A stretch of 64,000 nt of DNA, from positions 6,592,565-6,656,564 of the forward strand of contig JAKZAN010000001.1 in assembly GCA_023053545.1 (NCBI GenBank), in the 5' to 3' direction. Under the pieces are notes generated by a model that saw only the letters and a list, made by a program, of their open reading frames with translations, ran no database searches and was not told the DNA's origin. This document shows, piece by piece, positions 4,940 through 50,632 of the stretch. Positions within the stretch are counted from its first letter, which is position 1. Each line of letters starts with the position of its first letter. A program made the position numbers and the translations under genes. Source of the stretch: Lepidurus packardi. Taxonomy: Eukaryota > Arthropoda > Branchiopoda > Notostraca > Triopsidae.

Positions 4940-5201
4940 TGTTGTAATTCTTAGAAAGTATGTCCTTAACAACCTTGTTTATATTACTAAGAAGACCTTG
5001 TTTGCTGTTGACCCTGTCCCCTTTGCCCTAACGTTAACCTTAGCTTCCTCATTCCCTATTACCTTGACCTTAACCTTAGCTCATTATATCCAGTGATATA
5101 AAAGGGGTTGGTGTTTTGTAAGTCGGGGGTTCGGTTTCAGTTGGAAACGTAGCGGTGACAAGTTACTGTCAATACAGTGTTAGTCATAAGAAATCCCCAC
5201 A
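4940..5201 (+). repeat. 5' LTR of the BEL/Pao element
   Basis: 262 bp, starting TGTTGTAATTCTTAG and ending in CCCCACA. It matches the 3' LTR except for a 1-bp and a 2-bp insertion and two substitutions. A TATA box (TATAAAAG, 5097-5104) should drive transcription. Confidence 0.92.
5097..5104 (+). promoter_or_regulatory. LTR TATA box
   Basis: TATAAAAG lies inside the 5' LTR; the 3' LTR carries the same octamer. It is the expected core promoter element of the retrotransposon transcript. Confidence 0.65.
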
Positions 5202-5206
5202 TTTTT

Positions 5207-5224
5207 TGGTCCTCCGGACCGGAT
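5207..5224 (+). other. Probable tRNA primer-binding site
   Basis: TGGTCCTCCGGACCGGAT starts five bases after the LTR end. BEL/Pao elements prime reverse transcription from a tRNA 3' end complementary to such a TGG-initial site. The primer tRNA was not identified. Confidence 0.45.
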
Positions 5225-5457
5225 CCTCGACCTTTTGCATCTACAATCCCAGCTTGGATCCGTTGTCAACGACCTGTTCTCGCACGGTCTACCATCCTCG
5301 ATTCGGTTCTGCACCCTACACGGTTAATTCGCTTTGCAATTTCTGCGACGATTGCGTCCCTCTCCTCCCTGTTTGGTTGCCCAAGTTAACAACTTCGATC
5401 AGCATTACCGATAAGTATCTTCCCTTTTCGTTGCAGTTTATACTCTCCACTTCCGTC

Positions 5458-7167
5458 ATGGCTGAGTCGTCGCCATCTAACCTGTCCATTTCGCTTCAAA
5501 GGGCTATTCTTTTTAGAGATAGCTTTCGCGATCAGTTAATCAGGCTTTCTTCCCAACTCAATTCTTTTGTTAATGATTGCAAGGTTGATAGCGTCACTAG
5601 CATTCTGCCCATGTTCAGTAAAACCATAACTTCCTTTGAGAAAGCCCATGCTAACGTGCTCAAAAACATGGACGATGAGACAAGTTTAGCCGATTACAAA
5701 GCTCAGTTAGATCAATTCAATAGGGACAGTATAGATTTTGGAATTTTACAACAAACAGCTAAAACCTTAATTGATTCCGTTTCTCGTTCTCCGGTGGCAA
5801 CACCAGTTAACAATCCTGCATCTATTACGCCGCCTATTAGTACTTCTACCTTCTCTAATGTCAAACTTCCTAAGCTTGAAATTCGCCCTTTCTTTGGAAA
5901 CATGTTCGATTGGCAAAGATTTTGGGATTCTTTCAAAGTCTCTATCCATGATAATTCTAGCTTGTCTAACGTTGAGAAGTTCTCGTATCTACGATCCTTT
6001 TTGAAAGGTGATGCATTTCCTATTCTGAAATCTTTGGCTCTTACGGAGCAGAATTACACGCATGCCATTGACCTTTTGAACACCCGCTATGGACGAACTG
6101 ATATCATTGCCGCACACATGAAAGGGCTGCTGAAACTTCCTTCAATTCGTGCTTTTAAAGATGTTTCAGAACTACGCAAGTTGTATGACACTTGTCAGGG
6201 CCACCTTCATTCTTTGGATGCCTTTCATGTGGCGCCTAGCCGATATAACACCTTTCTACCAACTGCTATTCTGTCTAAATTACCAGAAAGTTTAGTGTTA
6301 GAGTACAGACGAAAGAATCAGGGCCCTTTAGAATTGTCGACTCTTCTGGAGTTTTTAAAAATCGAGTTAGAATGTCAGGAAGTCCTTCATCTATGGCGTG
6401 ACAAAAAAAAGCCGGAAGAACAACGTAAACCCAACAATACCCACAAAATACCTTCGTTGAGCGCCTTATCTACAACCGACTCCCCAAGCTCTTCATCCGA
6501 GCGTAAATGTCCCTTTTGCCAGGCAACGTCTCATTCAGCAATCAATTGTTCCCTGTCCTTAGACGAAAGACGTGCGTCTTTGAAAAGGTACCATCGTTGT
6601 TTTAACTGCCTACGCAAAGGTCATATGAGCGCTAAATGCCCCATCGCTCACCATCGGTGCCACTCTTGTAAGGGGTCTCATCATACTGCTATTTGCAAAC
6701 GCCACCCAGATCCGCAAGACGAAGCCACCAGCTCAAACCCTGAGGAAGTCTCCACTCCGCAAGAAACGGCTGCACTCTCCAACGTTACCACCTCAAGCGA
6801 TATTGTTTTGCAGACCGACACTATCATTGTGCGAGGTCCATGTCGTAAGGAGAATGTTCGCTGCATATTGGATGGGGGAAGTCAGCGCACGTACATCACT
6901 GAATCGCTTTCTCATCGTCTTGGGCTTCCAGTTCTTTCTAAAGCCAAGTTCCAGCTCAACACGTTCGGCTCGCGGAAATCCTCCGAACAAACTCGTCGGC
7001 AAGTTTCGTTCCAAATGTCCGGTTTACATCCTACTCATGATTTTATAAGGCCACTGAAGTTCCATAGATCTATGCGTCCTTACCTGCCGTACCAGTTGGA
7101 AGCTGGGCTTCAGCCATACCCAAGAATTGCTTTCCTTTGGCAGACACCTTGGACTCGGCGGTTGTAA
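5458..7167 (+). pseudogene. BEL/Pao gag and protease region
   Basis: The frame is open well upstream of 5458, but the first good ATG (MAESSPSNLSISLQ) is here. The N-terminal half matches the BEL/Pao gag-like DUF1759 type, with a WQRFWDSF motif around residue 150. Three Cys/His clusters follow (CPFCQATSHSAINC, CFNCLRKGHMSAKC, CHSCKGSHHTAIC), which are nucleocapsid-type zinc knuckles. The frame then enters the retroviral-type aspartic protease (CILDGGSQRTYI). It stops at 7167, and protease-to-RT linker residues continue in another frame from about 7150 to 7245, so the polyprotein is interrupted. In an intact element gag and pol are one polyprotein; here pol is detached. Confidence 0.85.
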
Positions 7168-10100
7168 AGCCATTCGATTTACTCATTGGGGCTGATCATT
7201 ATTGGAGCATTATTACAGACCAGATTAAGAGAATCCCAACGGACCCGTAGCAGTAAGCAGTAAAATCGGTTGGTTACTACATGGTCCCGTTCCTAGCGTC
7301 CCGACGTTGAACCCTGACACTTCCTTCAGCCTGTTTGTCCACAGCGAACAAATCTACGATCAACAACTTCCTAGTTTGTGGGAACTTGAAGGTATGGGTA
7401 TCAATCCTGATGAAGCAAGTCTTACGCGAACCGACCCGTCCCACCAGATTATCCTTGAGTATTCGATGGAAGATACTCTCTAGGGTTACCGTGGAAGGAC
7501 AACCATCCTACACTACCTTCAAACCTCGAGCTAGAAAAGAAACGTCTGAACGGTACATTATCACGTCTCACTACTAACCCTGATTTGCTGTTACAGTACG
7601 ACGGTATTCTTAAGGATTATCTCAAGAAGGGGTATATTGAACCGGTTAACCCCCAGGATGATGTTCCGTCATCTCTGGTACACTATTTACCACATCATCC
7701 TGTTATACGCAAGGACAAAGTCACTACCAAAGTTCGCATAGTTTTTGATGGTTCAGCTAAGATACCGGGGCAACCCTCTCTAAACGATTGTCTGCTTCAA
7801 GGCCCCAATCTAACTCCTGAACTTCTTTATATCCTGCTTCGATTTCGTTTCGTTAAGTATCCAGTAGTTGGCGATGTCCAGGAAGCGTTTCCTCAGCTCA
7901 AAATACACCAGTTCATCGCGATGTACTCCGGTTCCTGTGGCCTGCTATACCTTCGTCCTCTAAGGAGCTTCTTCATTACCGATGGCAACGTGTTCCATTT
8001 GGATTAACGTGTAGCCATGTTCTTCTAGCCGTTACACTGCAGCATCACTTCACGCACATGGAGTCTCAGTATCCTACCACTGTCTCCTTACTTCGGATGA
8101 ACACGTTCGTTGATGACGCTTTCCTGGGAGGCGATACTGAAGAAGCAGCTCTACAAACTGCCATTGAAGCTAGGAAGATCTTTCAAGAAGTGGGTATTAA
8201 TTTGCGAAAAATTACAAGTCCTCACCCCATGATACAGAACACCCTGGCTTCCGGATCAACTGCTTCAGAACTCCCAACTGTCGTCAAGGATTTGACCCCA
8301 GCGACATCAGGAAAGGTCCTTGGTCTACACTGGAACCTCCAGAACGATGGTTTCTATTTTGAAGCTTCCTCGTTACTTGATTATCTGTCAAACTTTTGCT
8401 TGCCTTATTCTAAACGTGCTTCTTTAAAAATTGTTCTTCTTTAAAATCTCGATTGTACGACCCTCTTGGCCAGTCAGTCAGTCCTGTAGTGCTGGGTCCT
8501 GGGTCAGTCCTGTAGTGTTTCTTGCAAAATCCTTTCTTCAAAGATTATGGCTTCGAGGGCTTGCTTGGGACAGTCCGCTTCCGATAGAGCTTGGCGAGGA
8601 ACTACGTATTTGGGCGTTAGACCTTTCCAGTTTGAAGAACCATTTGATCCCTCGATTTATCCACACCTCGTCAGAAAGCGTTCAAATCCATCTCTTCAGT
8701 GATGCCAGTGAGAGAGGCTATGCTACTGTTGCGTACGTTCGTAACACCAATGCCGCGACTAGTGAAGTCCATCTCCTGACCAGCAAAACTAGAGTTTCCC
8801 CGTTGAAGCGAATTTCGATTCCTCGGTTAGAACTCCTTTGTGCATTACTGTCGGCACGCCTAAGCCAGTATCTTAGGACTTCATTACTTTCTGTTTTCGG
8901 ATCTAATGTTCAATTTACCTTTTGGACCGATTCTCAAGTCGTCTTAAATTGGATCCAGAAACCAGCTTATCAATGGAAAAATTTCATCGCTAACCGTGTT
9001 GAAGAAATTCAGACCAGCATTTCTCCTGATCAATGGCGTTTCTGTCCTGGGAAAGAAAATCCTGCAGATGTGGCGTCTCGGGGGGAGTTGGCCAGTAAAC
9101 TCATCAAGAACGATCTCTGGTGGTCTGGTCCTGAATGGTTGAAAAAATCGGAAACCTCCTGGCCTATTTCTCGTCAGATGTCTTCAGAAAATTCTGTCCG
9201 TGTTTTCTCTTAATTGAAAGCTGATTCCGTTACCATATCCATTGTTGTCCCTAATCAGGAGCATTTGATTCCCTTTAAACAGTTTAGTTCGCTTCGTGTC
9301 TTCTTCGAGTAGTCGCTTGGATTTTGAGATTTCCCTTCAATTTAAGAAATACTGGCCATGGTCGGAAAGGATTTTTAAAGGCTGAAGAAATTAAAGCGGC
9401 TGAGCTTCAATGCGTACGGTTAGTCCAGAAAGAAGCCTTTTCTAGCGAATACTTGTCTCTCAAAAGCCAAATCCCAAATTTCGAAAAATTCTGCTCTTTT
9501 ACCTTTGCGTCCAGTTTTATGCCCCAAAACCGAAGTTCTCACTGTTTCTGGTCGATTTAACGCTCGCCAATTTCGCTGATTTCAACGCCTCCCCAATAAT
9601 TCTTCCAACTAACCATTCGTTCACTAAGTTGGTAGTGCGTTACCATCATTTGAAGAATTGTCATGCAGGAGCTCGCGACAGTTTAAGCTCGATTCGGTCT
9701 CAGTATTGGATTCCGCGGGGTAAACAATTGGTAAAATCTATATTGCGTAAATGTACTGTTTACAACAGGTTCAACTCTCTTCCCTGTTCTGAGATTCAAG
9801 CTCCTTTGCTATTGACCGCATCACTCCTACGCCACCTTTTGAAACTTCTGGTATTGATTTTGCGGGTCCCATTTTTGTAAAAACCCTTTCTGGTTCTGTT
9901 AAATCTTATATCTGTCTTTTTTGCGCCTTTACTCGCGCTTTGCACCTAGAGTTGGTTCCTGATTTGAGCACCTCTTCTTTCTTGTTAGCCCTTCGTCGAT
10001 TCATTTCTAGACGTGGTTTTCCGCACACGATTTATTCGGACAACGCCTTAACATTCAAGCGCGCCAATCGAGACCTCCAGCAACTTCATCGCCAAATTGC

Positions 10101-10744
10101 TAACTCTGCTGACGCTCAGAATTTTCTTTCGAATTTTCGCATTCACTGGAAGTTCATTGCCGAACGATCCCCATGGTGGGGAGGTTTTTACGAAATAATG
10201 GTAAGAAGCGTTAAAACTGCGTTGAAGAAAATTTTAGGCAAGGCTAGCTTCACCTATGAAGAAATGGAAACCATTTTGAGTGAAATCGAAGCATCTATCA
10301 ATTCACGACCTTTGACCCATCTATACGATGACCCTGAAGACCTGGAGCCATTGACGCCAAGTCACTTTCTCATTGGAAAACGTCTTAATTGCCTGCCTCC
10401 TCTCGTACCATCGTCTAAACCTACTACGGTCTCTGCCATGGAATTATCGAAACGCATGCGTTACCGCGATCGTATGGTGGATCACTTTTGGAGCCGATGG
10501 GACTAAGGAATACTTACCGGAACTTTGGAGGTCAACGACTCGAACTTCAGCCGTAAAATCTGTGGGCATCGGAGATGTTGTCATTATTAAAGAAGATAAC
10601 GTCAAACGTCAATTATGGAAGCTTGGACGCGTTTTGGAGTTGTATCCTGGTCGAGATGGGCGGACGCGGGCTGTACAATTAAAGACTAAAAATGGAATTC
10701 TCACAAGGCCTATATCCCGTTTATATCCCCTTGAATTGCATTAG
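7150..10744 (+). pseudogene. BEL/Pao pol region, broken frames (RT, RNase H, integrase)
   Basis: Pol domains are found in order but in separate frame pieces: RT N-terminal part at 7585-8007 (VRIVFDGSAK, SLNDCLLQGPNL), RT palm at 8058-8444 with FVDD as the catalytic aspartate motif, RNase H at 8431-9213 (DASERGY, TDSQVVLNWI), integrase zinc-binding part at 9629-9880, integrase core at 9940-10506 (DNALTF, then PWWGGFYE), and a DUF5641-like tail at 10373-10744 (GDVVIIKEDN). Stops and shifts separate the pieces, so no functional polyprotein is encoded. Neighbouring host genes are intact over many exons, so the breaks are more likely real than base-calling errors. Confidence 0.85.
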
Positions 10745-11903: not shown

Positions 11904-12730
11904 CTTGATTCAAGTGTACTAATCGCGCTAGATATTCTTGTGATTCAAAACCCCTCCGTCTCCCACGCCTGGAAGAAAGGTTTCTTGGAGCATATTCCCT
12001 TCCTAGCCCCTTCACAGGAAACAGAGAACCAATGGGCGACTGACTACGGAAAATCACAACCACTATTGCTACCGCAACTAACCTCACCTCTACCTACCAT
12101 TAAAAGTTCCACTGCTACCACTGCATTGCAAGTTGAAGCAAGGGGGACAGACTACAGTTACCTAGTTTTAGACAAGTCCGGTGACATCTTTGCTATTAAT
12201 AAAGATATTATCTTCAATGAAAGGCTGCAACAGATAGAAACAAACAATATTGTCAACAATCCCGTAAACAAGAAGGATCCTGTGGTTACTTATTACACAG
12301 AAAATGTGGCCAACGCACAATATCCCGTGGCTTATAACAACTACCCGGAACGTTACTACGTCCTTCCCACTAATGGGGCTCCTGAAGTGGTTGCTCATGG
12401 TGTCTTTTCCTATAAAGTATAATTGGGGAAGCGGGGACAGCAATTATAGTTCTAGGAATAGCAGCTTTCCACTATGAAAGCTTCAAAGTAGCATTCCAAG
12501 ACAGCCCCACAGTAGAATTTGATATGTCAATGCATGATCTCAAATTTGATCTCTTGGGCGACTGGCTCTGGAGGGTCGACTCTGTAACCGTGACCGCTTG
12601 CACTGTCACGGAATGTATCACTTTTGCCGTCCCTAACACGAGAAAACGGAGACAGCAGCTGGAAGAAAGTGGTATCCAACTCGATTTAGAATTCAAACTT
12701 GATCTACTACCCAATCAACACCTGTTCTAA
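11904..12730 (+). pseudogene. Frame-broken relative of the N-terminal module of the giant Cys-rich gene
   Basis: One frame is open from 11904 to the TAA at 12420-12422 and a second from 12416 to the TAA at 12728-12730. The second piece carries a short hydrophobic stretch (AGTAIIVLGIAAF), then VEFDMSM, then a TVT-rich segment (DSVTVTACTVTEC) and a basic TRKRR site. The downstream giant protein has the same order around residues 160-245: AGAAFLPVAALAMYF, VEFNKV, LTVTHTETAV. I infer a paralogous secreted-protein family member. The two frames overlap by only a few bases, so either one base was lost or gained near 12413-12425 or a short intron is missed. No signal-peptide exon was found, so the gene is probably degenerate or incomplete. 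Confidence 0.5.
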
Positions 12731-14917: not shown

Positions 14918-14953
14918 TATAAATAGTGGCTTCTCCTGTACCCACGACCAGTG
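14918..14953 (+). promoter_or_regulatory. TATA box and initiator of the giant Cys-rich gene
   Basis: TATAAATA at 14918-14925 is followed at the canonical arthropod distance by an initiator-like CCAGTG with its A at 14950, 32 bases after the first T of the TATA box. The start codon is at 14974, so the 5' UTR would be only about 24 bases. A strong TATA promoter suggests a tissue- or stage-specific, highly expressed secretory gene, which is inference. Confidence 0.65.
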
Positions 14954-14973: not shown

Positions 14974-17900
14974 ATGGCTTTCAAGTTTAAAACTAGGTAT
15001 CTCCCATGGGTTCTTATCATAAGTGCCGCCGTGTGTTTCAATAGTGTACAGGGCTGGGGTATGCCTGATTTGCTTCAACCCTTTGCGACGTACGAGCCTG
15101 AACCCTCTTTCAGCTCAACGGAGGAAAGCCTAGAAAATTCGCTCTACGACGACATCCAAATAAGAGAAAGTATTTCTCTGGCGGGCAACAGTTACATTTC
15201 TATTTATTCGGCCACGCAGGAAGCTACTACAGATCAGCGTAATGCTAGGCAAGTCGAATTTGATCCTTCATTTGACGGTTACGGAGAGCCTTTCAACTCC
15301 GATGACTTTGAACATGATGACTTTGCATTAAAGCCGTTCGCCAAACCGGCAAGTTCTTTATCTGCCAAAGAAACAAATGAACCTGCTGAAGAGAAGCTAG
15401 GTTTGGAGCACGCCTTGGCAGCCATTCCAATTGGTCTTGCCCTAAAAGTAGCAGGTGCTGCTTTTCTACCCGTTGCTGCTTTGGCCATGTACTTTGGCCA
15501 CGGCTACGACTCAAAGAGTAACAACGACCTCGACCAGCACGAAGTTTTCGGGGTTGAATTCAACAAGGTGAACTTGATGGACAGATTCTTTGGGAAAGCG
15601 AAATTAACTGTAACGCATACAGAGACCGCTGTACGCGATCCCCTTCCATGGGAAATGCCTACACATCTGACCCAGATGACCGCTCACACCACCCTAACTC
15701 GCACTGAAACATCAATGAATCTTGTTACCATTCCAACCTCCTTTTTCTATACGTCGACCAAGTTGGTAGCCGATTTAACTCGACCCTGCAACGATACCCA
15801 CTGCTGCCGCTGCCACTCCCCGACCGAATGCAGTAATTGCATTAACAAGCACCTCTGCGACGACGAAAATGAACCTTGCTGCGAATGTACTAACCATGTA
15901 TGCTCCAACTGCATTGGATCAGGTCTTCCTCGTTGTTCTTGCTGTCAATGCAGTAGCCCCAAAGATTGCATGAACTGCCGAAGCAGGTATTTCTGCGATG
16001 AACATGCCGACCCTGAGCTTTGCTGTCAATGTACAGACCAGTCCTGCGAAAACTGCGAAGTAGGACCTGAAAGATACAAGCCCCGATGCAGATGTTGTGC
16101 TTGCGTTGGAACTAATTGCGCAAACTGCCGAGACAGAATCACCTGTGAGGATGAGCATCCACCCAATTGTTGCTACTGCGAAGATAACACCTGCAGTAAC
16201 TGCGGTGTCAATACACCCCACTGTCCGTGTTGCCATTGTACCGACGTAAACTGCTCCAGTTGTGAGGGCCGGAAAGTGTGTCGAAACGAAATTCCCCCTA
16301 ACTGCTGCCGTTGCCGAGATAAAGACTGCTCCAACTGCCTTACCGGCTTAAACGTCTACAAGCCTCAATGTTCTTGCTGTACCTGTACAGATGCGGCTTG
16401 CGTAAACTGCAACGGTTTGCAGGTATGCGATGACGGTCCTCAACCGGCTGAATGTCATCAATGCGAGAACGGATGCGAATGCAAAATATGCACAGATGAT
16501 AAACCCATCTGTGTATGCTGTAAATGCAACGATGCAAGCTGTAGTAACTGCAACGGTAGAACAGTTTGTATGGCAGAGGAACCCGCAACATGCTGTACCT
16601 GCAAAGATAAAGACTGCAGGAACTGCGACGCCACCACAACGAGATGCCCGTGTTGTTCATGTCAAAGCGCCTGGGATTGCACGAATTGTTATGGTAAGTG
16701 TGAAACAAATAGTTTTAATATTCTTTCCGCTTTCTCATAAAAACGCATGAAACAACTTCCGAGTTAAAAGCGGACTCCAGAAGTTTCTGAGCGTAAGCGC
16801 GTTCCTTCCTTTCCATAAATTCACTCTTGCAATGTTGAAATTACAATTCCTTATACAAACCTCTCACAAACAAATGTGATAAAGACATTGGGTTCGAACC
16901 ATTTGTCTGTATATAGTATAGTATATATTATAGTATATATGTGTTTATATATAATATAGTATAGAAATGGTTCGCTTCAATCTTCGTGAAACATCTTAAT
17001 GAGTAACAGAGTCTAACACAGCTACCATTATTTTCCGAACAGTTTTTAGGCGGTTTACGACTTAACGACGGCGATTACGAATAGTATTGTCACGTCACTA
17101 ACTAACAGCTGGTTGGATTTTGCAATGACGTGGTCTTTCACGGGGCCCTGATCTTGCTAGGAACAGGAAGATTAAGGTTGAGGTCGCTAACAGAATCTGT
17201 ATTTTCTACTGGCATACAATCCCCACCTGCTCTGTAGCTTTTTCTTTCCAGTTTCCCTGTCGCCACTCTTCTTTTCACCTTCCTTTCTATCATCCTTTTA
17301 TGACCTACCCAAACACAGACGAAATCAACGTAGTCCCCTTAGTTTCGGGGAAGTGACATTCACTAGCCCAGAAACCAATGGTACGGGGGGAACAAAAAAG
17401 GGAAACTACGCTAGGAAAACGACTAACAAAAATTGACATGACATTACTCCCGGCCCACTTTCGAACGCCCCGTTCGAATTACAACTATGGACCTGGGTCT
17501 TTTAAGGAAGTCAGTGTCAGCCGTAACTCATGCAAATGGTTATAAAAACTGAACTAAGGGCATGCAAAATAACACAAACAAGATAAAGTTGGCCGGTGTT
17601 AGTAACGGATAAAAATTATAGGACGCAACGTAGATTGTCAGAACGAACCCTGTCAACAGTGGTAGCGCCTTACAACCGGTTTTTTTAACTCAGTCTAGGC
17701 GGTTATTCATCGTTGAGGCCGTAAAATTGAGTTTTTTTTACGTAATCGGCCAGATCTCCTCAGGCCAGATTGCTAAGCTAGTGGTAATTGTTTGTCCCAG
17801 GGTTCATTTCCCGTCGACCAGTTTTCTTCAGTGGTCTTCTGTGTAGGGACGGAGTCATTGGTACTCCCAAGGGTGATACATTCCGTATCAGGGTCTACGT

Positions 17901-20900
17901 CACCTATTTCATCCGCCTTTTGGGGAATTGTCGATGACCCGTTTAAGTTATAACTTTTTTCTACGTAAGGTTTGAGACGGGAAACATGTATGATGACCGA
18001 TTGCTTTCTTTTTTTTCCCTGAACTTCGTAATCAACCGGTGATGTCTTGCGAAGTATCATGTACGGACCAAAGTAGCGGTGTAGAACCTTCTCAGAACGT
18101 CCGACTTTTCGGACAGGGGTATAAACCCAAACTAGAGACCCTTCATAAAATTATTTGTGCTCGCGAGTTTCATCGTAACGTTCCTTTTGTTTGCCTTGCA
18201 CCTTCTCCATCTTTTCCCTTGCTATCTCGAACGTCTTTCTCAGCCGGTTGGCGACCTCAGTTGCCGGGCTGGGTGGCTCAGAATCTTCTTGCAGAACATC
18301 AGGAATAGATCCCAGTGCTGCATCAATCGGGAGTTTTGGTTCTCTCCCGTACAAAAGAAAGAACGGAGAATACCCGATAGACTCCTGCCTTGAAGTATTG
18401 TAGGCGAAAGTCACGGCATCTAAACTAACGTCCCAATCCCGGTGATTACTGCTTACCTACATGGAAAGCATGTCCGAAAGTGTGTGGTTCAGCCTTTCAG
18501 TTAAGCCATTACATTGCGGGTGATACGCAGTCATCGTAGTGTGGTTAGTCTGTAAGGTCCTGAATAATTTACCCGCAAATGCTTCGTGGTTGCTAAGCCA
18601 GACCGAAACTTGGCCAAAGTCTCTCAAGCGCGGGTCTCGGATCGGCAGGACGGCAAGCGATGGCGTGAAGGAAATCATTATATTATGATCGATTCTAAAT
18701 AAACCAAAGTACCTACGGACTTGCTTGATTATTCAAATAAAAATAGTGTTGCCGTCCCTATGAGTCCAGGGATAGATTTTCGATGTGCTCATAGGCAAAG
18801 GCGCTAGCTTTTTGACCAGCTTTCCCAGAATGTTATAAGGATAGAAAAATTTTAAATTTGTCGGAAAGGGGACGAGCTTATTCCTCTAAATAACTGATAG
18901 ACAAGTTAAACCTCGGTTTGCGAGTAACTTGGTTTACGAGTGTTTCGCAACAATGTCCGAGCGATAACTTGTTATACGAGCAGTACACTCTGTATAGTAT
19001 GCTGAATACGTTGTAATACTCATATAGTGCACCATCCGAATAAGGCTGTAGCAGTGCGAGCGATGAATCTGTTTAACGACAATGTAATGTCACATTTCCG
19101 CGAAATCATCAGAAGGAGGCTAAAGCAACTGTCACTGGATAGGTTCTAAAGTCGCACAATAGTTCATAAATTCGATTACTTTATGCGAGTATTAATCATT
19201 ATTACATTGAAAATTTTAGGGTTTGGAAGGAAATATCTAAGTTTCCATTGTTCTTTATGGGAAATTCGCTTTAAGGTACAAGTGCTTTGGATTGCGCGCA
19301 CGTTTGCGGAATTAAGAATTAAAAAACGGAATTGCAATCCATTTACGTAACATGCGATTATAAGCTTTTTGTATTGTACGACGGTTACGAATAAACTTAA
19401 TTAGATCAAATCCTTCTGTAATGTTTGTAGAGTTACTGTTATTTGAGTCAATATTATTGGCAGAAATCTTAGAAGCACGTACGACTATCGGTACAATTAC
19501 GTTCGTTAATTCCTAATTTCTATAACTGCAAAATTGTCGTATGATCAATGTTACATTACTTATAAAAATACTAAAGGGCATTACTAAAACACACAGTTTT
19601 AGACAACTTCTAATTGTATAATGTGATATTGGCAACAGGCCAAAGCCTACGCCGTAAAAATAAATTTTAAAAAGTGGTATTCTATGTAAAAGTACATGGA
19701 AAGTGGTTTGCATTTAATCCCATCTTGTCCAAGTTTACAAAAAATTCTTAGTAAACGTTTTAAAGCAAAAAAGTTACAATAGACAAGCACAGAATTACAT
19801 GTAAAGTTTGTAAGATTAGAGGAGACTCGGGTCAAAGTAACATTTCGGACTTTTGTTTAGTTTTCCCTTGTAACACGAACCTAACTATCATCGGAATGTA
19901 AAACCAATAGATGCAGGCATATCTCTGGACTCCATTAAGCCACTGTATGCTGCATAAAAACGTAAAATAAGATCAAACTAGCCTTCAAACCAGGAGCTCC
20001 TCCTTTGTTACAACCGTATAAACCGTTGGGTAAAAAATAACATCATGTTTAACGTACGTTGCCCCATAAGAAACTTTGCCGATAAAATTTTTAGCCATAC
20101 ACATAACATATTGTAATGAAAATGTACAGTTACAGTCGGCACATTTACTAAAATTTGAGGACCGTTTCTATCAAGAAGTTGTGTATTATAAGAAAAAAAG
20201 AAAAAAAACAGAAATATGCAACGTTGTAAAGGGCTGGCGGTGGGTTTTCTTACGTCCGGCATTTTGAACTTCAAAACAAAAAACGTCAGGCAATGTTGCC
20301 GTTTTTCGCGATATAGATCCCATGGACGAGAAATCTCATGTTACAATCGTTTAAAAGGGTTTGTTGAGATGTCTATATTTCCTGTAAAGTCACTGTAGAG
20401 CTATGATGTCTGAACTTTAAGTATGTTATTCTGTAGCATTAGCGAGCTTAAAAAATATTTATTTTTTATAATTTTTGGTTATCTGTAGTTAACGTAAGAG
20501 CTAAAAAAGTTCCGCCCGTTTTTGTTAAGAAAGGTAGTGAAACCAGACATTATTCAATATCTCGATTAATTCTCACTCGTTTCACATGTAACTTTCTTTA
20601 ATGCTGCCTAGTGGTATGTGGCATGACCGTGATTTTCTACAGCCTCTAGAAACCGTTTGTTAAAGAGTTATGATTTTTGTTACTTTCGTGTCGCGTTCTA
20701 TTTGACCCAAGTCTCCTCTACCATTGTATTTTCATAATGAAATAGTTAGATACTTATTTTGAGCATAACTATTGAGCAGTTGAACTAGTCCTTTACATGA
20801 ACATATAACTCAGATCGTGTTCGTAGATTTTGGTAGGATTAATCTTTTACGAAGGCGTCATATCACTTTTAAGAAGTTTTCGGCAAGATTGTTATTTTCT

Positions 20901-23900
20901 GTTATGCAGCTAAATTTTCTGTTATGCAGCAATATTATGAAAACCTGCAAGACCACTGTTGATTATTCAATAATGAATACGAATGGGCGTTTCTTTCCTA
21001 GGTAAGACCATGTGCTTTGGACAAGATGCTCCCAATTGTTGCGAATGCCGTGGAAACGACTGTTCAAATTGTAAACAGGGATCAAATGTAAATAGACCTA
21101 GATGTTCCTGTTGTACGTGCGATGACACAGAATGCGACAACTGTGACGGAAGTTATATATGCGAAGATAGCAACCCACAGCCGGACAATTTCTGCCAATG
21201 CCAAGGAAGAGGATGTAGAAATTGTAAAGATGAAGACGATTTGCCACACATTCATTGCTGCTCGTGTGGAAATAGCACAAACTGTGCAGAGTGTAACGGA
21301 AAACGAATCTGCGAAGGGGAAATCACATCAAACTGTTGTAAATGTAACGACGCTGACTGCACAAATTGTAACAACAATTCTCCAGAATGTCCCTGTTGCG
21401 TATGCGAAAACTCGAGATGCAATAACTGTAAAAACAGATTCATGTGCAGCGGCGAAAATCCTCCCGGCTGTTGTCAATGCCGCGATTCAAACTGCACAAA
21501 CTGCGATGAAAGGTCAAATATAAATAAACAGGAATGCCGTTGCTGTACTTGTAACGACATTACCTGTTCTAACTGCGATGGACAACTTGTATGCCAGGAT
21601 AGCATCCCACAACCAGACAACTTCTGCCAATGTCGTGGAAACGATTGCAATAACTGCAAAGATAAGGAAGACCTGCCCCATTGCAACTGCTGTGAATGCA
21701 CAGATAGCAGTTGTTCAAACTGTAACGGAAAACTAGTTTGCGATGGAGAAAACCCTTCAAACTGCTGTAAATGTAATGATGCTGATTGCAAGAACTGTGA
21801 CGATTCCTCTCCCACATGCGCTTGCTGTGAATGCGAAGGCTTAAATTGCAATAACTGCAAAAATAAGTACGTGTGCACCGGCCAAGATCCTGCCAATTGC
21901 TGTAGGTGCCGAGGAAAGGATTGCGCAAACTGCAATGAAGGGATGAACAAGAATAAACCCAAATGCGACTGCTGTACGTGTGAAGGCACAGCTTGCAAAA
22001 ATTGCGATGGAGATCTTGTATGCCAGGATAGCATCCCACAACCAGACAACTTCTGCCAATGTCGTGGAAACGATTGCAATAACTGCAAAGATAAGGATGA
22101 CCTGCCCCATTGCAACTGCTGTGAATGCACAGATAGCAGTTGTTCAAACTGTAACGGAAAACTAGTTTGCGATGGAGAAAACCCTTCAAACTGCTGTAAA
22201 TGTAATGATGCTGATTGCAAGAACTGTGACGATTCCTCTCCCACATGCGCTTGCTGTGAATGCGAAGGCTTAAATTGCAATAACTGCAAAAATAAGTACG
22301 TGTGCACCGGCCAAGGTCCTGCCAATTGCTGTAGGTGCCGAGGAAAGGATTGCGCAAACTGCAATGAAGGGATGAACAAGAATAAACCCAAATGCGACTG
22401 CTGTACGTGTGAAGGCACAGCTTGCAAAAATTGCGATGGAGATCTTGTATGCCAGGATAGCATCCCACAACCAGACAACTTTTGCCAATGTCGTGGAAAC
22501 AATTGCAATAACTGCAAAGATAAGGATGACCTGCCCCATTGCAACTGCTGTGAATGCACAGATAGCAGTTGTTCAAACTGTAACGGAAAACTAGTTTGCG
22601 ATGGAGAAAACCCTTCAAACTGCTGTAAATGTAATGATGCTGATTGCAAGAACTGTGACGATTCCTCTCCCACATGCGCTTGCTGTGAATGCGAAGGCTT
22701 AAATTGCAATAACTGCAAAAATAAGTACGTGTGCACCGGCCAAGATCCTGCCAATTGCTGTAGGTGCCGAGGAAAGGATTGCGCAAACTGCAATGAAGGG
22801 ATGAACAAGAATAAACCCAAATGCGACTGCTGTACGTGTGAAGACACAGCTTGCAAAAATTGCGATGGAGATCTTGTATGCCAGGATAGCATCCCACAAC
22901 CAGACAACTTTTGCCAATGTCGTGGAAACAATTGCAATAACTGCAAAGATAAGGATGACCTGCCCCATTGCAACTGCTGTGAATGCACAGATAGCAGTTG
23001 TTCAAACTGTAACGGAAAACTAGTTTGCGATGGAGAAAACCCTTCAAACTGCTGTAAATGTAATGATGCTGATTGCAAGAACTGTGACGATTCCTCTCCC
23101 ACATGCGCTTGCTGTGAATGCGAAGGCTTAAATTGCAATAACTGCAAAAATAAGTACGTGTGCACCGGCCAAGATCCTGCCAATTGCTGTAGGTGCCGAG
23201 GAAAGGATTGCGCAAACTGCAATGAAGGGATGAACAAGAATAAACCCAAATGCGACTGCTGTACGTGTGAAGGCACAGCTTGCAAAAATTGCGATGGAGA
23301 TCTTGTATGCCAGGATAGCATCCCACAACCAGACAACTTTTGCCAATGTCGTGGAAACAATTGCAATAACTGCAAAGATAAGGATGACCTGCCCCATTGC
23401 AACTGCTGTGAATGCACAGATAGCAGTTGTTCAAACTGTAACGGAAAACTAGTTTGCGATGGAGAAAACCCTTCAAACTGCTGTAAATGTAATGATGCTG
23501 ATTGCAAGAACTGTGACGATTCCTCTCCCACATGCGCTTGCTGTGAATGCGAAGGCTTAAATTGCAATAACTGCAAAAATAAGTACGTGTGCACCGGCCA
23601 AGATCCTGCCAATTGCTGTAGGTGCCGAGGAAAGGATTGCGCAAACTGCAATGAAGGGATGAACAAGAATAAACCCAAATGCGACTGCTGTACGTGTGAA
23701 GGCACAGCTTGCAAAAATTGCGATGGAGATCTTGTATGCCAGGATAGCATCCCACAACCAGACAACTTCTGCCAATGTCGTGGAAACGATTGCAATAACT
23801 GCAAAGATAAGGATGACCTGCCCCATTGCAACTGCTGTGAATGCACAGATAGCAGTTGTTCAAACTGTAACGGAAAACTAGTTTGCGATGGAGAAAACCC

Positions 23901-26900
23901 TTCAAACTGCTGTAAATGTAATGATGCTGATTGCAAGAACTGTGACGATTCCTCTCCCACATGCGCTTGCTGTGAATGCGAAGGCTTAAATTGCAATAAC
24001 TGCAAAAATAAGTACGTGTGCACCGGCCAAGATCCTGCCAATTGCTGTAGGTGCCGAGGAAAGGATTGCGCAAACTGCAATGAAGGGATGAACAAGAATA
24101 AACCCAAATGCGACTGCTGTACGTGTGAAGACACAGCTTGCAAAAATTGCGATGGAGATCTTGTATGCCAGGATAGCATCCCACAACCAGACAACTTTTG
24201 CCAATGTCGTGGAAACAATTGCAATAACTGCAAAGATAAGGATGACCTGCCCCATTGCAACTGCTGTGAATGCACAGATAGCAGTTGTTCAAACTGTAAC
24301 GGAAAACTAGTTTGCGATGGAGAAAACCCTTCAAACTGCTGTAAATGTAATGATGCTGATTGCAAGAACTGTGACGATTCCTCTCCCACATGCGCTTGCT
24401 GTGAATGCGAAGGCTTAAATTGCAATAACTGCAAAAATAAGTACGTGTGCACCGGCCAAGATCCTGCCAATTGCTGTAGGTGCCGAGGAAAGGATTGCGC
24501 AAACTGCAATGAAGGGATGAACAAGAATAAACCCAAATGCGACTGCTGTACGTGTGAAGGCACAGCTTGCAAAAATTGCGATGGAGATCTTGTATGCCAG
24601 GATAGCATCCCACAACCAGACAACTTCTGCCAATGTCGTGGAAACGATTGCAATAACTGCAAAGATAAGGATGACCTGCCCCATTGCAACTGCTGTGAAT
24701 GCACAGATAGCAGTTGTTCAAACTGTAACGGAAAACTAGTTTGCGATGGAGAAAACCCTTCAAACTGCTGTAAATGTAATGATGCTGATTGCAAGAACTG
24801 TGACGATTCCTCTCCCACATGCGCTTGCTGTGAATGCGAAGGCTTAAATTGCAATAACTGCAAAAATAAGTACGTGTGCACCGGCCAAGATCCTGCCAAT
24901 TGCTGTAGGTGCCGAGGAAAGGATTGCGCAAACTGCAATGAAGGGATGAACAAGAATAAACCCAAATGCGACTGCTGTACGTGTGAAGACACAGCTTGCA
25001 AAAATTGCGATGGAGATCTTGTATGCCAGGATAGCATCCCACAACCAGACAACTTTTGCCAATGTCGTGGAAACAATTGCAATAACTGCAAAGATAAGGA
25101 TGACCTGCCCCATTGCAACTGCTGTGAATGCACAGATAGCAGTTGTTCAAACTGTAACGGAAAACTAGTTTGCGATGGAGAAAACCCTTCAAACTGCTGT
25201 AAATGTAATGATGCTGATTGCAAGAACTGTGACGATTCCTCTCCCACATGCGCTTGCTGTGAATGCGAAGGCTTAAATTGCAATAACTGCAAAAATAAGT
25301 ACGTGTGCACCGGCCAAGATCCTGCCAATTGCTGTAGGTGCCGAGGAAAGGATTGCGCAAACTGCAATGAAGGGATGAACAAGAATAAACCCAAATGCGA
25401 CTGCTGTACGTGTGAAGGCACAGCTTGCAAAAATTGCGATGGAGATCTTGTATGCCAGGATAGCATCCCACAACCAGACAACTTCTGCCAATGTCGTGGA
25501 AACGATTGCAATAACTGCAAAGATAAGGATGACCTGCCCCATTGCAACTGCTGTGAATGCACAGATAGCAGTTGTTCAAACTGTAACGGAAAACTAGTTT
25601 GCGATGGAGAAAACCCTTCAAACTGCTGTAAATGTAATGATGCTGATTGCAAGAACTGTGACGATTCCTCTCCCACATGCGCTTGCTGTGAATGCGAAGG
25701 CTTAAATTGCAATAACTGCAAAAATAAGTACGTGTGCACCGGCCAAGATCCTGCCAATTGCTGTAGGTGCCGAGGAAAGGATTGCGCAAACTGCAATGAA
25801 GGGATGAACAAGAATAAACCCAAATGCGACTGCTGTACGTGTGAAGACACAGCTTGCAAAAATTGCGATGGAGATCTTGTATGCCAGGATAGCATCCCAC
25901 AACCAGACAACTTTTGCCAATGTCGTGGAAACAATTGCAATAACTGCAAAGATAAGGATGACCTGCCCCATTGCAACTGCTGTGAATGCACAGATAGCAG
26001 TTGTTCAAACTGTAACGGAAAACTAGTTTGCGATGGAGAAAACCCTTCAAACTGCTGTAAATGTAATGATGCTGATTGCAAGAACTGTGACGATTCCTCT
26101 CCCACATGCGCTTGCTGTGAATGCGAAGGCTTAAATTGCAATAACTGCAAAAATAAGTACGTGTGCACCGGCCAAGATCCTGCCAATTGCTGTAGGTGCC
26201 GAGGAAAGGATTGCGCAAACTGCAATGAAGGGATGAACAAGAATAAACCCAAATGCGACTGCTGTACGTGTGAAGGCACAGCTTGCAAAAATTGCGATGG
26301 AGATCTTGTATGCCAGGATAGCATCCCACAACCAGACAACTTCTGCCAATGTCGTGGAAACGATTGCAATAACTGCAAAGATAAGGATGACCTGCCCCAT
26401 TGCAACTGCTGTGAATGCACAGATAGCAGTTGTTCAAACTGTAACGGAAAACTAGTTTGCGATGGAGAAAACCCTTCAAACTGCTGTAAATGTAATGATG
26501 CTGATTGCAAGAACTGTGACGATTCCTCTCCCACATGCGCTTGCTGTGAATGCGAAGGCTTAAATTGCAATAACTGCAAAAATAAGTACGTGTGCACCGG
26601 CCAAGATCCTGCCAATTGCTGTAGGTGCCGAGGAAAGGATTGCGCAAACTGCAATGAAGGGATGAACAAGAATAAACCCAAATGCGACTGCTGTACGTGT
26701 GAAGACACAGCTTGCAAAAATTGCGATGGAGATCTTGTATGCCAGGATAGCATCCCACAACCAGACAACTTTTGCCAATGTCGTGGAAACAATTGCAATA
26801 ACTGCAAAGATAAGGATGACCTGCCCCATTGCAACTGCTGTGAATGCACAGATAGCAGTTGTTCAAACTGTAACGGAAAACTAGTTTGCGATGGAGAAAA

Positions 26901-28416
26901 CCCTTCAAACTGCTGTAAATGTAATGATGCTGATTGCAAGAACTGTGACGATTCCTCTCCCACATGCGCTTGCTGTGAATGCGAAGGCTTAAATTGCAAT
27001 AACTGCAAAAATAAGTACGTGTGCACCGGCCAAGATCCTGCCAATTGCTGTAGGTGCCGAGGAAAGGATTGCGCAAACTGCAATGAAGGGATGAACAAGA
27101 ATAAACCCAAATGCGACTGCTGTACGTGTGAAGGCACAGCTTGCAAAAATTGCGATGGAGATCTTGTATGCCAGGATAGCATCCCACAACCAGACAACTT
27201 CTGCCAATGTCGTGGAAACGATTGCAATAACTGCAAAGATAAGGATGACCTGCCCCATTGCAACTGCTGTGAATGCACAGATAGCAGTTGTTCAAACTGT
27301 AACGGAAAACTAGTTTGCGATGGAGAAAACCCTTCAAACTGCTGTAAATGTAATGATGCTGATTGCAAGAACTGTGACGATTCCTCTCCCACATGCGCTT
27401 GCTGTGAATGCGAAGGCTTAAATTGCAATAACTGCAAAAATAAGTACGTGTGCACCGGCCAAGATCCTGCCAATTGCTGTAGGTGCCGAGGAAAGGATTG
27501 CGCGAACTGCAATGAAGGGATGAACAAGAATAAACCCAAATGCGACTGCTGTACGTGTGAAGACGCAGCCTGCAAAAACTGCATGGGAGAAGTTATATGC
27601 GAAGATAGCGGTAGTCAACCACCGGATTCTTGTTGTACGTGCCAAGGGAATAACAACTGCAAGAATTGCGATGATGTGTATGACGAACCGCTCTGCCCTT
27701 GTTGCGTTTGCGAAAATAAACAGTGTGCTAACTGCAAAGATAAGACCCTTTGCGTCGGACAAGAGTCTTTTGATGCCTGTGACTGTGAAGACGAAGCTTG
27801 TGGAAATTGCCCATCAACTGATGCTCGTCGTCCTTGCTGCCGCTGTGCAACTAGCACTAATTGCAATAATTGTAAAAACAAAAATCTTTGCGAGGGAGAG
27901 ACCAAGTCTGCTTGCTGCTTATGCGAAAACGACGCCTGCAAAAATTGCGACATTACCTCCCAAAAGAGCAAGCCACGCTGCAAGTGTTGTAAGTGTACGT
28001 CTTCAACTGATTGCAATAACTGTAACAACAAGAACCTTTGCGAAGGAGAAATTACCGATTGTTGTAAGTGTAGCGATCGGCAATGTAGCAATTGCAAGAC
28101 TGGCGTTTTTGCGGGTATGAAGCGATGTCGTTGCTGTGAATGTGAGGCCAACGGAAAATGTACTAACTGCGCTAATAAAGTGTTATGTGACGAAGACGTC
28201 AACACGGAGTCAAATTCCTGCTGCAAATGTAAGACAGTGGATTGTTCGGATTGCACCGATAACACTCAAACACAGTGCCCATGCTGCGAATGCGACGATA
28301 GTTCCAACTGCAATAACTGTAAGAACAGCCAAAAATCACAATGTAGTGGACCAGTGGCATTTTTCAAATCTTCTGTCTCCAATGTCACTATCGTTCCAAT
28401 TTTGGCCAAAAACTAA
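14974..28416 (+). CDS. Giant secreted cysteine-module repeat protein, two exons
   Basis: Exons 14974-16693 and 21002-28416 join in phase 1 at consensus sites (G|GTAAGTG and CCTAG|GT) and restore the module motif across the junction (CTNCYGKTMC), giving about 3044 residues. The start was chosen for its ATCATGG context and the signal peptide that follows (hydrophobic core WVLIISAAVCF, residues 12-22). Residues 28-268 lack the Cys pattern and hold a hydrophobic stretch around 144-176 and Thr-rich TVT motifs. From about residue 270 to the end the protein alternates two cysteine modules: A, CxCCxCx4CxNCx5C (one extra residue in some copies), and B, CCxCx4CxNC. About 57 A-B pairs occur, 42 of them inside the near-perfect array. 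Cysteine is about a quarter of the repeat region. An extracellular, disulfide-linked or metal-binding matrix material (secretion, glue, egg or cuticle coat) is my inference. I know no named homologue. Confidence 0.85.
17773..18680 (-). mobile_element. Decayed Ty3/gypsy integrase fragment
   Basis: On the minus strand three frame pieces read, in order, the integrase end segment (TAYHPQCNGLTERLNHTL, from 18678 down), the post-core region (GYSPFFLLYGREPKLP, 18414-18151) and a C-terminal chromo-like or linker segment (IIHVSRLKPYVE, 18060-17773). These are typical of Ty3/gypsy pol 3' ends. Frames are interrupted, and no LTR or upstream pol was seen, so this is a remnant. Confidence 0.75.
18905..19320. 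mobile_element. Degenerate mariner/Tigger-like MITE
   Basis: The left part (ACCTCGGTTTGCGAGTAACT, then TTGGTTTACGAGTG) and the right part (GGGAAATTCGCTTTAAGGTA, then GTGCTTTGGATTGCG) resemble the ends of short pogo/Tigger-type elements scattered through many animal genomes, from memory of that family. No transposase is present and the borders are approximate. Confidence 0.4.
21589..27594 (+). repeat. 429-bp tandem repeat array, 14 coding units
   Basis: Fourteen units of 429 bp (143 codons) lie head to tail in frame within exon 2, with very few differences between units. Each unit is three A-B cysteine module pairs and has 35 cysteines, not 36, because one B module reads NFCQC where the others read NCCxC. 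Units differ chiefly at two sites: AACGATTGC versus AACAATTGC, and GAAGGCACA versus GAAGACACA. Flanking modules on both sides have the same layout but are well diverged, so amplification is recent and confined to the centre. Confidence 0.95.
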
Positions 28417-36324: not shown

Positions 36325-37989
36325 ATGTTCCGCTGGTTGACGATAATTAAGCATTTCATAACAAGAAATAATCTGGTTAAGGTTTATAAAACTGTGGAAT
36401 CTCCTGCACCAAGATCTACAATAATCCCTGCTCAAATGTCCAAAGGTAAGAAGCGTTTTGTGTGTCATTCGCGACAAGGCTTTTGATATTGTTGTATGTT
36501 TTCTTACTCCAGATGCCTCTCAAGTGGATCTTGAAAGTAAAGGCAGCGAAAATAAGCAACAGGATGGGTTAAACAGCTTAAAAGAGTCCCCCAAATCATG
36601 TAGAGCTGACGCTCCTGAAGTAGACATCCTACAACGGTATTTTGCGCAAAAGCTGGGCATTTCGGATGAAAACGACAAGTCTGGGATGTCAAACAAAAAG
36701 GTTTATTGAAAGTCTAAATCTACCATTGAGTCCTGATTCTTTATTAAACATTTTTGTCCTTTCAAGGTTTATCAAGTCCTGGACGATGTTTCTGTGGATG
36801 GAATTGTATCTTATATCAAGCAGAGCAAGTGCAAGAACGTTATAACAATGGCTGGAGCTGGAATATCCACATGTAAATTGTTTAATTGAACCTACAAAAA
36901 CTATAAAACTAACGATTCTAACTTATCGTTCTCTTTTTAGCAGCAGGGATTCCCGATTTTAGGACCCCTGGCCATGGCTTATATGATAATTTGGAAAACT
37001 ATAATCTCCCCTATCCCCAAGCTGTTTTCGAAATTGACTTTTTTCGCAAAAACCCTGAGCCGTTTTTTACATTGGCTAAAGATCTGTACCCTGGAGCCTA
37101 CGAGCCCACATTATCCCACCATTTTATCAAGTTACTCTGCGACAAGGGGCTTCTCTTGCGGCATTACACACAAGTGAGTCCACAAAGTCAGTTGACTTAG
37201 TCCCGTAAATATCCTTTTTGCTTTCTACAGAATATCGATATGTTAGAGCGAAAGGCTGGAGTGCCGCCAGAAAAGATTGTAGAAGCCCACGGCACATTTC
37301 ACACGTCCCATTGCCTCAACAAGAACTGTAATGCCGAGTACGACTTGGAATGGATGAAAGGTACATTGAAAAAGTTCGGTTATAAAAAGAGAGACAAAAT
37401 TGTATGAAAAATCTTTCAATTTTTAGAGCATATATTTAGCGACAAAACGCCATACTGTACACGTTGCAAAACAGTGGTAAAACCCGATATTATTTTTTTT
37501 GGCGAAGAGTTGCCATCTCGGTTTTCCCGGTTGATGCATGAGGATTTTCCTAAATGCGATTTGCTCATTATTTTGGGCACTTCATTAGTCGTCCAACCTT
37601 TCGCCTCCCTCGTTGACCGGTAATTTACTAGTATAACTAGTAAATACGCTTTTTACTAAAAAAATACTCTATTTCAGGGTACCCAATTCCTGCCCTCGGC
37701 TGCTTATTAACCGAGAAAAAGCTGGCAGCATTGATCCTTTGACGCTAGTTTTGGGTTTAACCTGTGGACTTGACTTTGATTCATCGGATAATTACAGAGA
37801 CGTAGCCTTACTCGGCCATTGTGATGAAGGGTGTGTCCAGATGATAACCAAACTGGGTTGGAAGGTAATTGAGCAACGATTTTGAAACCGAAGCTTTTTG
37901 CAATTATTTTGTAGGACGAGTTGGACAAGCGCATGAAAGAACAAGGATCCTCTCACAACACGGCCAATCATTCAACAAAAGAGCAGTAA
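36325..37989 (+). CDS. SIRT2: Sirtuin 2 (NAD-dependent deacylase)
   Basis: Eight exons: 36325-36445, 36513-36700, 36767-36872, 36941-37173, 37231-37360, 37427-37619, 37678-37864 and 37915-37989, all joining in frame to 410 residues. The enzyme removes acyl groups from lysines using NAD. Visible motifs are the NAD site GAGISTSAGIPDFR (133-146), TQNID, the catalytic His in EAHGTFH (His236), zinc ligands Cys244/249 (CLNKNC) and Cys270/273 (CTRC), and GTSLVVQPF. The core ([20 protein letters not shown] zinc loop) is closer to SIRT2 than SIRT3. The first 37 residues are basic and hydrophobic with one acidic residue, unlike usual SIRT2; a second ATG (36436) would start MSKDASQ. It converges on UBASH3 with 440 bp between stops. 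Confidence 0.95.

Positions 37990-41277: not shown

Positions 41278-50632
<9,355 letters not shown>

What the first reader, a model, noticed from the sequence alone, without database searches (positions are those of the whole stretch)
14974..28416. Giant secreted protein built almost entirely from alternating cysteine modules
Two exons splice in frame to about 3044 residues: a signal peptide, a ~240-residue non-Cys module, then ~57 A-B cysteine module pairs (CxCCxCx4CxNCx5C and CCxCx4CxNC). I know no named family with this layout. A TATA/initiator promoter, secretion signal and extreme Cys content point to a bulk extracellular material, either disulfide-crosslinked or metal-binding. Balbiani-ring secretory proteins of midges are a loose analogy (large, Cys-bearing repeats), not a claimed homologue.
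Basis: partly seen in the sequence, partly recalled or inferred. Interest (0 to 1): 0.88.

Follow-up and report, generated by a model that had tools for sequence, protein, structure and literature searches.

The report
Giant cysteine-module protein of tadpole shrimp
A tadpole-shrimp gene encodes a huge, apparently secreted protein made of 115 small six-cysteine modules, probably a disulfide-hardened outer material, and it seems to have grown from a family of short secreted proteins that carry a single such module.

Summary
Two exons (14974-16693, 21002-28416) splice in frame to 3044 residues: a signal-peptide-like start, 244 residues without Cys, then 115 six-Cys modules (58 A, 57 B; 672 Cys). 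It is under coding selection. The core is 14 copies of a 429-bp, six-module unit, 13 of them 99.1-100% alike, with an 858-bp higher-order period. A mitochondrial-like copy in the same assembly is 98% identical to Lepidurus COX1, so the host is a tadpole shrimp, probably Lepidurus.
The array has no second copy detected in the genome. Pfam, NCBIfam, PDB sequences, Foldseek and two searches of 5.8 billion proteins gave nothing significant. New here: the N-terminal half is distantly related to short genes of the same genome (11 loci, 9 seen whole and intact) that have a Thr-rich stretch and one C-terminal six-Cys module. The giant is best read as a derived relative in which that module was amplified. 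Best mechanism (inferred): a secreted, disulfide-bonded structural protein with one odd Cys per unit left for cross-linking; the drought-resistant egg shell is the likeliest site, but unproven.

The parts
14918..14925 (+). TATA-box-like element (TATAAATA), 56 bases before the ATG
   Evidence: sequence; background 5.8% per 80-base slot
14974..16693 (+). exon 1, coding (residues 1-573 and the first base of codon 574)
14974..15054 (+). signal-peptide-like segment (residues 1-27), presumed mature start WGMP
   Evidence: hydropathy; same place as an aromatic-x-[M/V/I]-P start in 7 of the 8 short relatives; no signal-peptide program available
15055..15786 (+). non-Cys N-terminal region (residues 28-271), distantly related to the short family
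   Evidence: HMM of 8 short members: 25.9 bits, 0 of 1000 shuffles and 0 of 1000 block shuffles reach it
15412..15498 (+). hydrophobic segment (about residues 147-175)
   Evidence: mean hydropathy up to 1.82; helix 153-175 in a low-confidence model
15598..15777 (+). Thr-rich stretch (about residues 209-268), short counterpart of the long Thr-rich region of the relatives
   Evidence: sequence, alignment
15802..16693 (+). first Cys modules, diverged (residues 277-573); module 560-585 is completed by exon 2
16694..21001 (+). intron, 4308 bases, GT-AG, holding a decayed LTR-retrotransposon integrase piece on the - strand
21002..28416 (+). exon 2, coding, stop codon at 28414-28416
21190..21621 (+). 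diverged six-module unit (residues 637-780); its F-module lacks both Cys 1 and Cys 6
21574..27609 (+). near-identical tandem array, 429-base period, 14.1 copies, 858-base higher-order period
27547..28413 (+). diverged C-terminal modules and tail (residues 2756-3044)

Best explanation
A tadpole-shrimp gene for a ~326-kDa secreted structural protein. Shown by sequence: gene model, module array, coding selection, recent array growth, distant kinship with short one-module proteins of the same genome. Inferred: the chain is exported through the ER; each six-Cys module folds into a small disulfide-bonded unit (Cys 1 probably pairs with Cys 6), giving a long hydrophilic string; every 143-residue unit of the core has 35 Cys, so at least one per unit is left over and can join chains; the chains harden after secretion. 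The likeliest place is the desiccation-resistant egg (cyst) shell or egg glue (about 0.3); cuticle, other glue or gut lining are the alternatives. Evolution: the single C-terminal module of a short relative was duplicated, first to a six-module unit, later to tandem copies of it. The confidence given is for the secreted disulfide structural role, whatever the site.
For: Signal-peptide-like start, with a presumed mature-start motif shared by 7 of 8 short relatives. Cys codons: silent changes near saturation (pS 0.945), replacements few (pN 0.185). Cys per module is 6 in 99, 5 in 14 and 4 in 2 of 115 modules; both 4-Cys modules (637, 2832) lack Cys 1 and Cys 6 together, and the atypical module at 493 has a changed pattern but still six Cys, as expected if Cys are used in pairs. 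35 Cys in each of 14 units, 34 in the diverged unit before them. AlphaFold2 on four modules with 21 rows from this gene: mean pLDDT 84.7, pTM 0.62, so a compact repeated fold is plausible. Family kinship. Artemia cyst shell needs lineage-specific shell-gland peptides reported as without homologues (SGEG1/2; PMC3108945, abstract, one results section and discussion read): analogy only.
Against: No transcript, tissue or protein data. The 14 F-modules of the core keep Cys 6 although Cys 1 is lost, which fits Cys 1-Cys 6 pairing poorly unless the free Cys is used elsewhere. The paired losses are only two events. pTM 0.62 is moderate, the alignment is made of repeats of the same gene, and coordinates could not be inspected for Cys-Cys distances. 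Low aromatics and 24% Cys would also suit metal binding. Nothing in the sequence itself points to eggs. The kinship with the short family rests on a distant match found from a weak lead.
Confidence: 0.5

Rival explanations
1. Giant extracellular metal binder: Cys clusters hold metal ions (metallothionein-like) for storage, detoxification or metal-hardening.
For: 24.3% Cys in the array, few aromatics (F, Y and H each under 1%, W 0.0% after rounding), pI 4.61. The discussion of PMC3108945 cites a finding that iron fell in Artemia cysts after SGEG1 knock-down.
Against: Signal-peptide-like start implies an oxidising route; both 4-Cys modules lost Cys 1 and Cys 6 together; no Pfam or NCBIfam metallothionein match.
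Confidence: 0.15
2. Same secreted disulfide mechanism, but a material of cuticle, adhesive, mouthparts or gut lining, not of eggs (overlaps with the best explanation in mechanism, differs in site).
For: Nothing in the sequence points to eggs; short relatives have long Thr-rich stretches such as mucin-like secretions have (the likeness to mucins is recalled).
Against: No evidence specific to these tissues either.
Confidence: 0.3
3. Membrane protein: the second hydrophobic segment (about 147-175) is a transmembrane helix and the Cys array faces the cytosol or is tethered at the surface.
For: Hydropathy up to 1.82 and a predicted helix 153-175; a hydrophobic segment lies at the same place in the short relatives.
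Against: With a cleaved signal peptide the array would lie in the reducing cytosol, at odds with paired Cys losses; the segment holds Pro and Gly; the model there is of low confidence (mean 44).
Confidence: 0.08
4. Artefact: collapsed or expanded assembly, or a pseudogene with repeats that happen to stay open.
For: 6 of 8 compared pairs of 858-base stretches one period apart are identical, so the array length may be wrong; antisense frames are also open there.
Against: The frame is open also in the diverged modules on both sides, with strong constraint on Cys codons.
Confidence: 0.04

Closest known systems
Short one-module secreted proteins of the same genome (11 loci on C1, C2, C3, C6; unnamed family found here)
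   Same: Signal-peptide-like start; aromatic-x-[M/V/I]-P (7 of 8 aligned), LL..EPSW-like motif (6 of 8), hydrophobic segment, Thr-rich stretch, six-Cys module CCxC..C(x)xCx5C (8 of 8; a ninth)
   Different: One module against 115; long Thr-rich region against a short one; basic cluster and [L/I/F][P/S]IxPT tail (8 of 8) absent in the giant; one open frame against two exons
Balbiani ring secretory proteins of Chironomus (recalled) / Pfam CXCXC PF03128
   Same: Giant secreted Cys-bearing tandem repeats (recalled)
   Different: PF03128 gives 9 matches in the genome, none in this gene; no Balbiani ring sequence was at hand to compare
SGEG1 and SGEG2, Artemia cyst-shell peptides (PMC3108945)
   Same: Branchiopod, secreted, reported as without homologues; SGEG2 has a presumed basic cleavage site, and the short relatives here have basic clusters
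   Different: SGEG2 is a 255-residue pre-peptide after its signal; the word cysteine does not occur in the main text; sequences not available here, so not compared
Secreted cysteine-rich repeat proteins, SCREPs (PMC6262176)
   Same: A class named for secretion, Cys richness and repeats
   Different: A class, not a homology family; abstract, outline and one passage seen

Membership tests
Short one-module family of this genome | Related N-terminal half (signal, x-P motif, hydrophobic segment) | tested here: met
   HMM of 8 short members: 25.9 bits, best of 2000 shuffles 10.7; no other of 778 window peptides above 3.4 bits. Single-sequence match weak, E 0.94 and 0.11
Short one-module family of this genome | Six-Cys module CCxC..C(x)xCx5C | tested here: met
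   alignment; the same Cys order arises in at most 0.13% of 20000 shuffles of each of the 8 short members' segments. By similarity search the giant's modules do not find the short ones, so this rests on Cys pattern
Short one-module family of this genome | Basic cluster and conserved C-terminal tail | tested here: not met
   giant ends SGPVAFFKSSVSNVTIVPILAKN (compare): so a derived relative, not filed as a regular member
Balbiani ring / CXCXC (PF03128) | Match to the CXCXC profile | tested here: not met
   9 matches in genome, 0 in this gene; no Pfam match up to E 10
Metallothionein | Match to a metallothionein profile | tested here: not met
   Pfam; NCBIfam
Metallothionein | Metal-thiolate clusters | not testable with these tools
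   needs native protein
Artemia SGEG cyst-shell peptides | Shell-gland expression and sequence kinship | not tested
   no sequence or expression data at hand
SCREP class | Secreted, Cys-rich, tandem-repeated | tested here: inconclusive
   repeats and Cys content shown; secretion inferred only; the paper's exact criteria were not read

The most novel reading that the evidence does not exclude
A new biomaterial principle: a single-module secreted protein was turned, within tadpole shrimps, into a 326-kDa string of a new six-Cys fold in which one deliberately unpaired cysteine every 143 residues sets regularly spaced cross-links between chains, making the wall that lets eggs survive drought; array length would tune cross-link number.
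Probability: 0.2. Interest if true: 0.78.

Novelty: new variant of a known kind. Interest (0 to 1): 0.55.

Why it matters
Giant Cys-rich secretions are known from several lineages (recalled), but their origin is rarely visible. Here the probable starting material (short proteins with one module) and the outcome (115 modules) sit in one genome, with a six-module unit and its recent copying readable in the repeats. If the product is the egg shell, it would give a molecular handle on how tadpole-shrimp eggs survive drying, and a sequence-defined disulfide material.

Tried and rejected
Known-family readings: Pfam on both exons and on cut modules up to E 10, NCBIfam, PDB by sequence (one hit each at E 0.5 and 1.6, taken as chance), Foldseek against PDB and viral models, VIA-align (no chain to align): nothing. 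Pfam on the family was run on the shortened proteins only (none of 9). Protein searches of 5.8 billion sequences with the exon 1 frame (4373 candidates, none at E 0.01) and with the family alignment (the 8000 candidates sharing most words were scored, none); both are limited to proteins of 0.55-1.75 times the query's length with shared 5-letter words. The collection holds branchiopod proteins, but I did not establish that it holds a predicted proteome of any tadpole shrimp, and the full 3044-residue chain was not searched as one query. Viral contigs: no pattern match; prokaryote genomes: 29 pattern matches, none confirmed.

Other Cys arrays in the genome: the 32 matches listed at E up to 10 all lie in this gene, as do 17 of 18; this search does not see the single modules of the short relatives, so scattered single modules could be missed. 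Weak further matches not counted as family members: C6 10045663 and C6 8247954, C5 8829377. Coding on the other strand: rejected. A shared TATA promoter: TATAWA within 160 bases before the ATG in 2 of 10 genes looked at, the giant and one short member. Structure of the N-terminal 308 residues: mean pLDDT 44, unusable. The upstream remnant 11904-12730 as a family member: the family HMM does not list it.

No claim is made that the gene is absent from print beyond the listings.
Full report
WHAT IS THERE. Exon 1 (14974-16693) and exon 2 (21002-28416) join in frame to a 3044-residue protein; the intron has GTAAGT and TTTCCTAG borders and is 4308 bases long. The junction lies within a module and restores its normal spacing (CCxC x5 CxxC x5 C x7, residues 560-585), which is good indirect evidence for it. 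Residues 1-27 look like a signal peptide (hydropathy; no dedicated program was at hand). Residues 28-271 have no Cys. From residue 277 on there are 115 modules: 114 found by the pattern CxCx3-5CxxC, and one atypical module at residue 493 added by hand; 58 are A and 57 are B, alternating. A and B are one six-Cys module: A has 5 residues between Cys 5 and 6 (7 in the last) and a long linker to the next module; B has 6-10 where both Cys are present and, in 55 of 57, ends in C-x directly before the next CC. Calculated mature mass is about 326 kDa, pI 4.61.

IT IS A CODING GENE. The sense frame runs open through the near-identical core and the diverged flanks; antisense frames are open (one frame without a stop, one with one stop) in the core and have 3-11 stops each in the three diverged pieces. 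Across 110 pairs of distinct same-kind, same-length modules, silent sites at Cys codons are nearly saturated (pS 0.945) while replacements are few (pN 0.185); at other codons pN/pS is 0.668. These are simple proportions without multiple-hit correction, and the pairs are not independent. Both Cys codons are used (442 TGC, 231 TGT).

REPEAT HISTORY. The core 21574-27609 is 14.1 copies of 429 bases, that is 143 residues or six modules. Cut at the F-module, 13 copies are 99.1-100% alike and the fourteenth, which runs into the diverged end, is 93.9-94.6%. From the fifth copy on, two unit types alternate, so the recent growth went by 858-base pairs of units; 6 of 8 compared pairs of 858-base stretches one period apart are identical. 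The six-module order is older than this growth: modules before the core still match those one unit further on (e.g. residues 610/754, 637/781, 685/828). Copy number in the assembly should be treated with caution.

HOST. A mitochondrial-like COX1 copy on C6 is 98% identical to Lepidurus apus apus and L. couesii, 97% to two further Lepidurus entries, 96-97% to Triops and 93% to clam shrimps (the best 120 of 7999 were listed); the window also holds miR-277 and miR-317. The assembly (108.56 Mb, 344 contigs) is therefore a tadpole shrimp, probably Lepidurus; the species is not settled, and this copy is a nuclear-contig copy with a stop, not the mitochondrial gene itself.

RELATIVES. Elsewhere in the genome the array has no match: the 32 matches listed at E up to 10 are all in this gene. 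A weak match of the N-terminal region (E 0.94, 0.11) led to a family of 11 loci: C1 5706098, 5715936, 5720039, 5727664, 5731566; C2 1178176; C3 1368212, 1373846, 1379280; C6 9983655, 9991877. Nine were seen whole and intact; 5720039 has a premature stop and 1373846 was seen in part. They are single open frames of roughly 310-620 residues, stop to stop. Eight are aligned: aromatic-x-[M/V/I]-P at the presumed mature start in 7 of 8, an EPSW-like motif in 6 of 8, a hydrophobic segment, a Thr-rich region (left out of that alignment), six Cys in the order CCxC..C(x)xCx5C in 8 of 8, a basic cluster and a conserved tail in 8 of 8; the ninth, has the same six Cys. An HMM of the N-terminal parts of the eight scores the giant at 25.9 bits, against at most 10.7 in 2000 shuffles, half of them keeping local composition; of 778 six-frame peptides of the window none but exon 1 rises above 3.4 bits. 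This is distant kinship, supported but not overwhelming, and the lead came from following a weak match. The link between the modules themselves rests on the Cys pattern, since a search with the giant's modules did not bring up the short genes. The giant lacks the basic cluster and the tail, so I call it a derived relative in which the module was multiplied and the Thr-rich part shrank.

HOW IT PROBABLY WORKS. Modules have 6 Cys in 99 cases, 5 in 14 and 4 in 2. The two 4-Cys modules (residues 637 and 2832) lack Cys 1 and Cys 6 together; the atypical module at 493 has a shifted pattern but still six Cys. This pairwise behaviour favours disulfides, with Cys 1-Cys 6 as a likely pair; it rests on two or three events. 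Against it, the 14 five-Cys modules of the core lack Cys 1 but keep Cys 6. They give each core unit 35 Cys (the diverged unit before them has 34), so at least one thiol per unit has no partner within its unit. I propose it joins chains. AlphaFold2 on four modules, with 20 further rows from the same gene, gave mean pLDDT 84.7 and pTM 0.62; Foldseek found nothing in PDB or viral models up to E 10, though such searches are weak on small Cys-rich folds (recalled) and the model's coordinates could not be inspected. The N-terminal part gave no usable model.

WHERE IT ACTS is a guess. Tadpole shrimps lay drought-resistant eggs (recalled); in Artemia, shell-gland peptides reported as without homologues are needed for the cyst shell and protect the embryo (PMC3108945; abstract, one results section, discussion and passages read). 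I give the egg shell or egg glue about 0.3 and other extracellular sites together about the same.

AGAINST KNOWN KINDS. Pfam, NCBIfam and PDB sequence searches gave no family; the CXCXC profile has 9 matches in the genome, none in this gene. Two searches of 5.8 billion proteins found nothing, within their length and word limits. The paper searches that were answered did not list a paper on this protein by title or abstract; the literature on Balbiani rings could not be searched.

VERDICT. A real and unusual gene, in a tadpole shrimp, with a visible probable origin: a new family and a new variant of secreted Cys-repeat proteins rather than a new kind of system.

Noticed in passing
window 5122-10506 (+): BEL/Pao-like retrotransposon upstream of the gene (DUF1759, Peptidase_A17, integrase core below its cut-off).
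   Followed up: no
window 17776-18150 (-): Decayed LTR-retrotransposon piece inside the intron (Integrase p58 C-terminal and Tf2-1 SH3 domains; two neighbouring frames up to 18732 gave no Pfam match).
   Followed up: partly
window 11904-12730 (+): Two overlapping frames just upstream that end in a Thr/Cys stretch followed by RKRR, resembling the tail of the short family; possibly a broken or spliced gene. The family HMM does not list it.
   Followed up: partly
window 47356-47439 and 49095-49182 (+): miR-317 and miR-277 precursors close together.
   Followed up: no
window 36922-37620 (+): Two frames of a Sir2-family gene.
   Followed up: no
window 21474-27614 (-): Antisense ORFs of over 2000 codons that seem to exist only because the repeat lacks stops on that strand.
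   Followed up: yes
genome C1 5.70-5.73 Mb, C3 1.37-1.38 Mb, C6 9.98-9.99 Mb: Clusters of short Thr-rich secreted-looking genes, with 83-85% identical pairs between clusters on different contigs.
   Followed up: partly
genome C1, C2, C4, C5, C6, C21, C38: Many COX1-like pieces with TGA codons, probably nuclear copies of mitochondrial DNA; three COX1-family frames without stops on C52, C214 and C43 suggest bacterial contigs in the assembly.
   Followed up: partly
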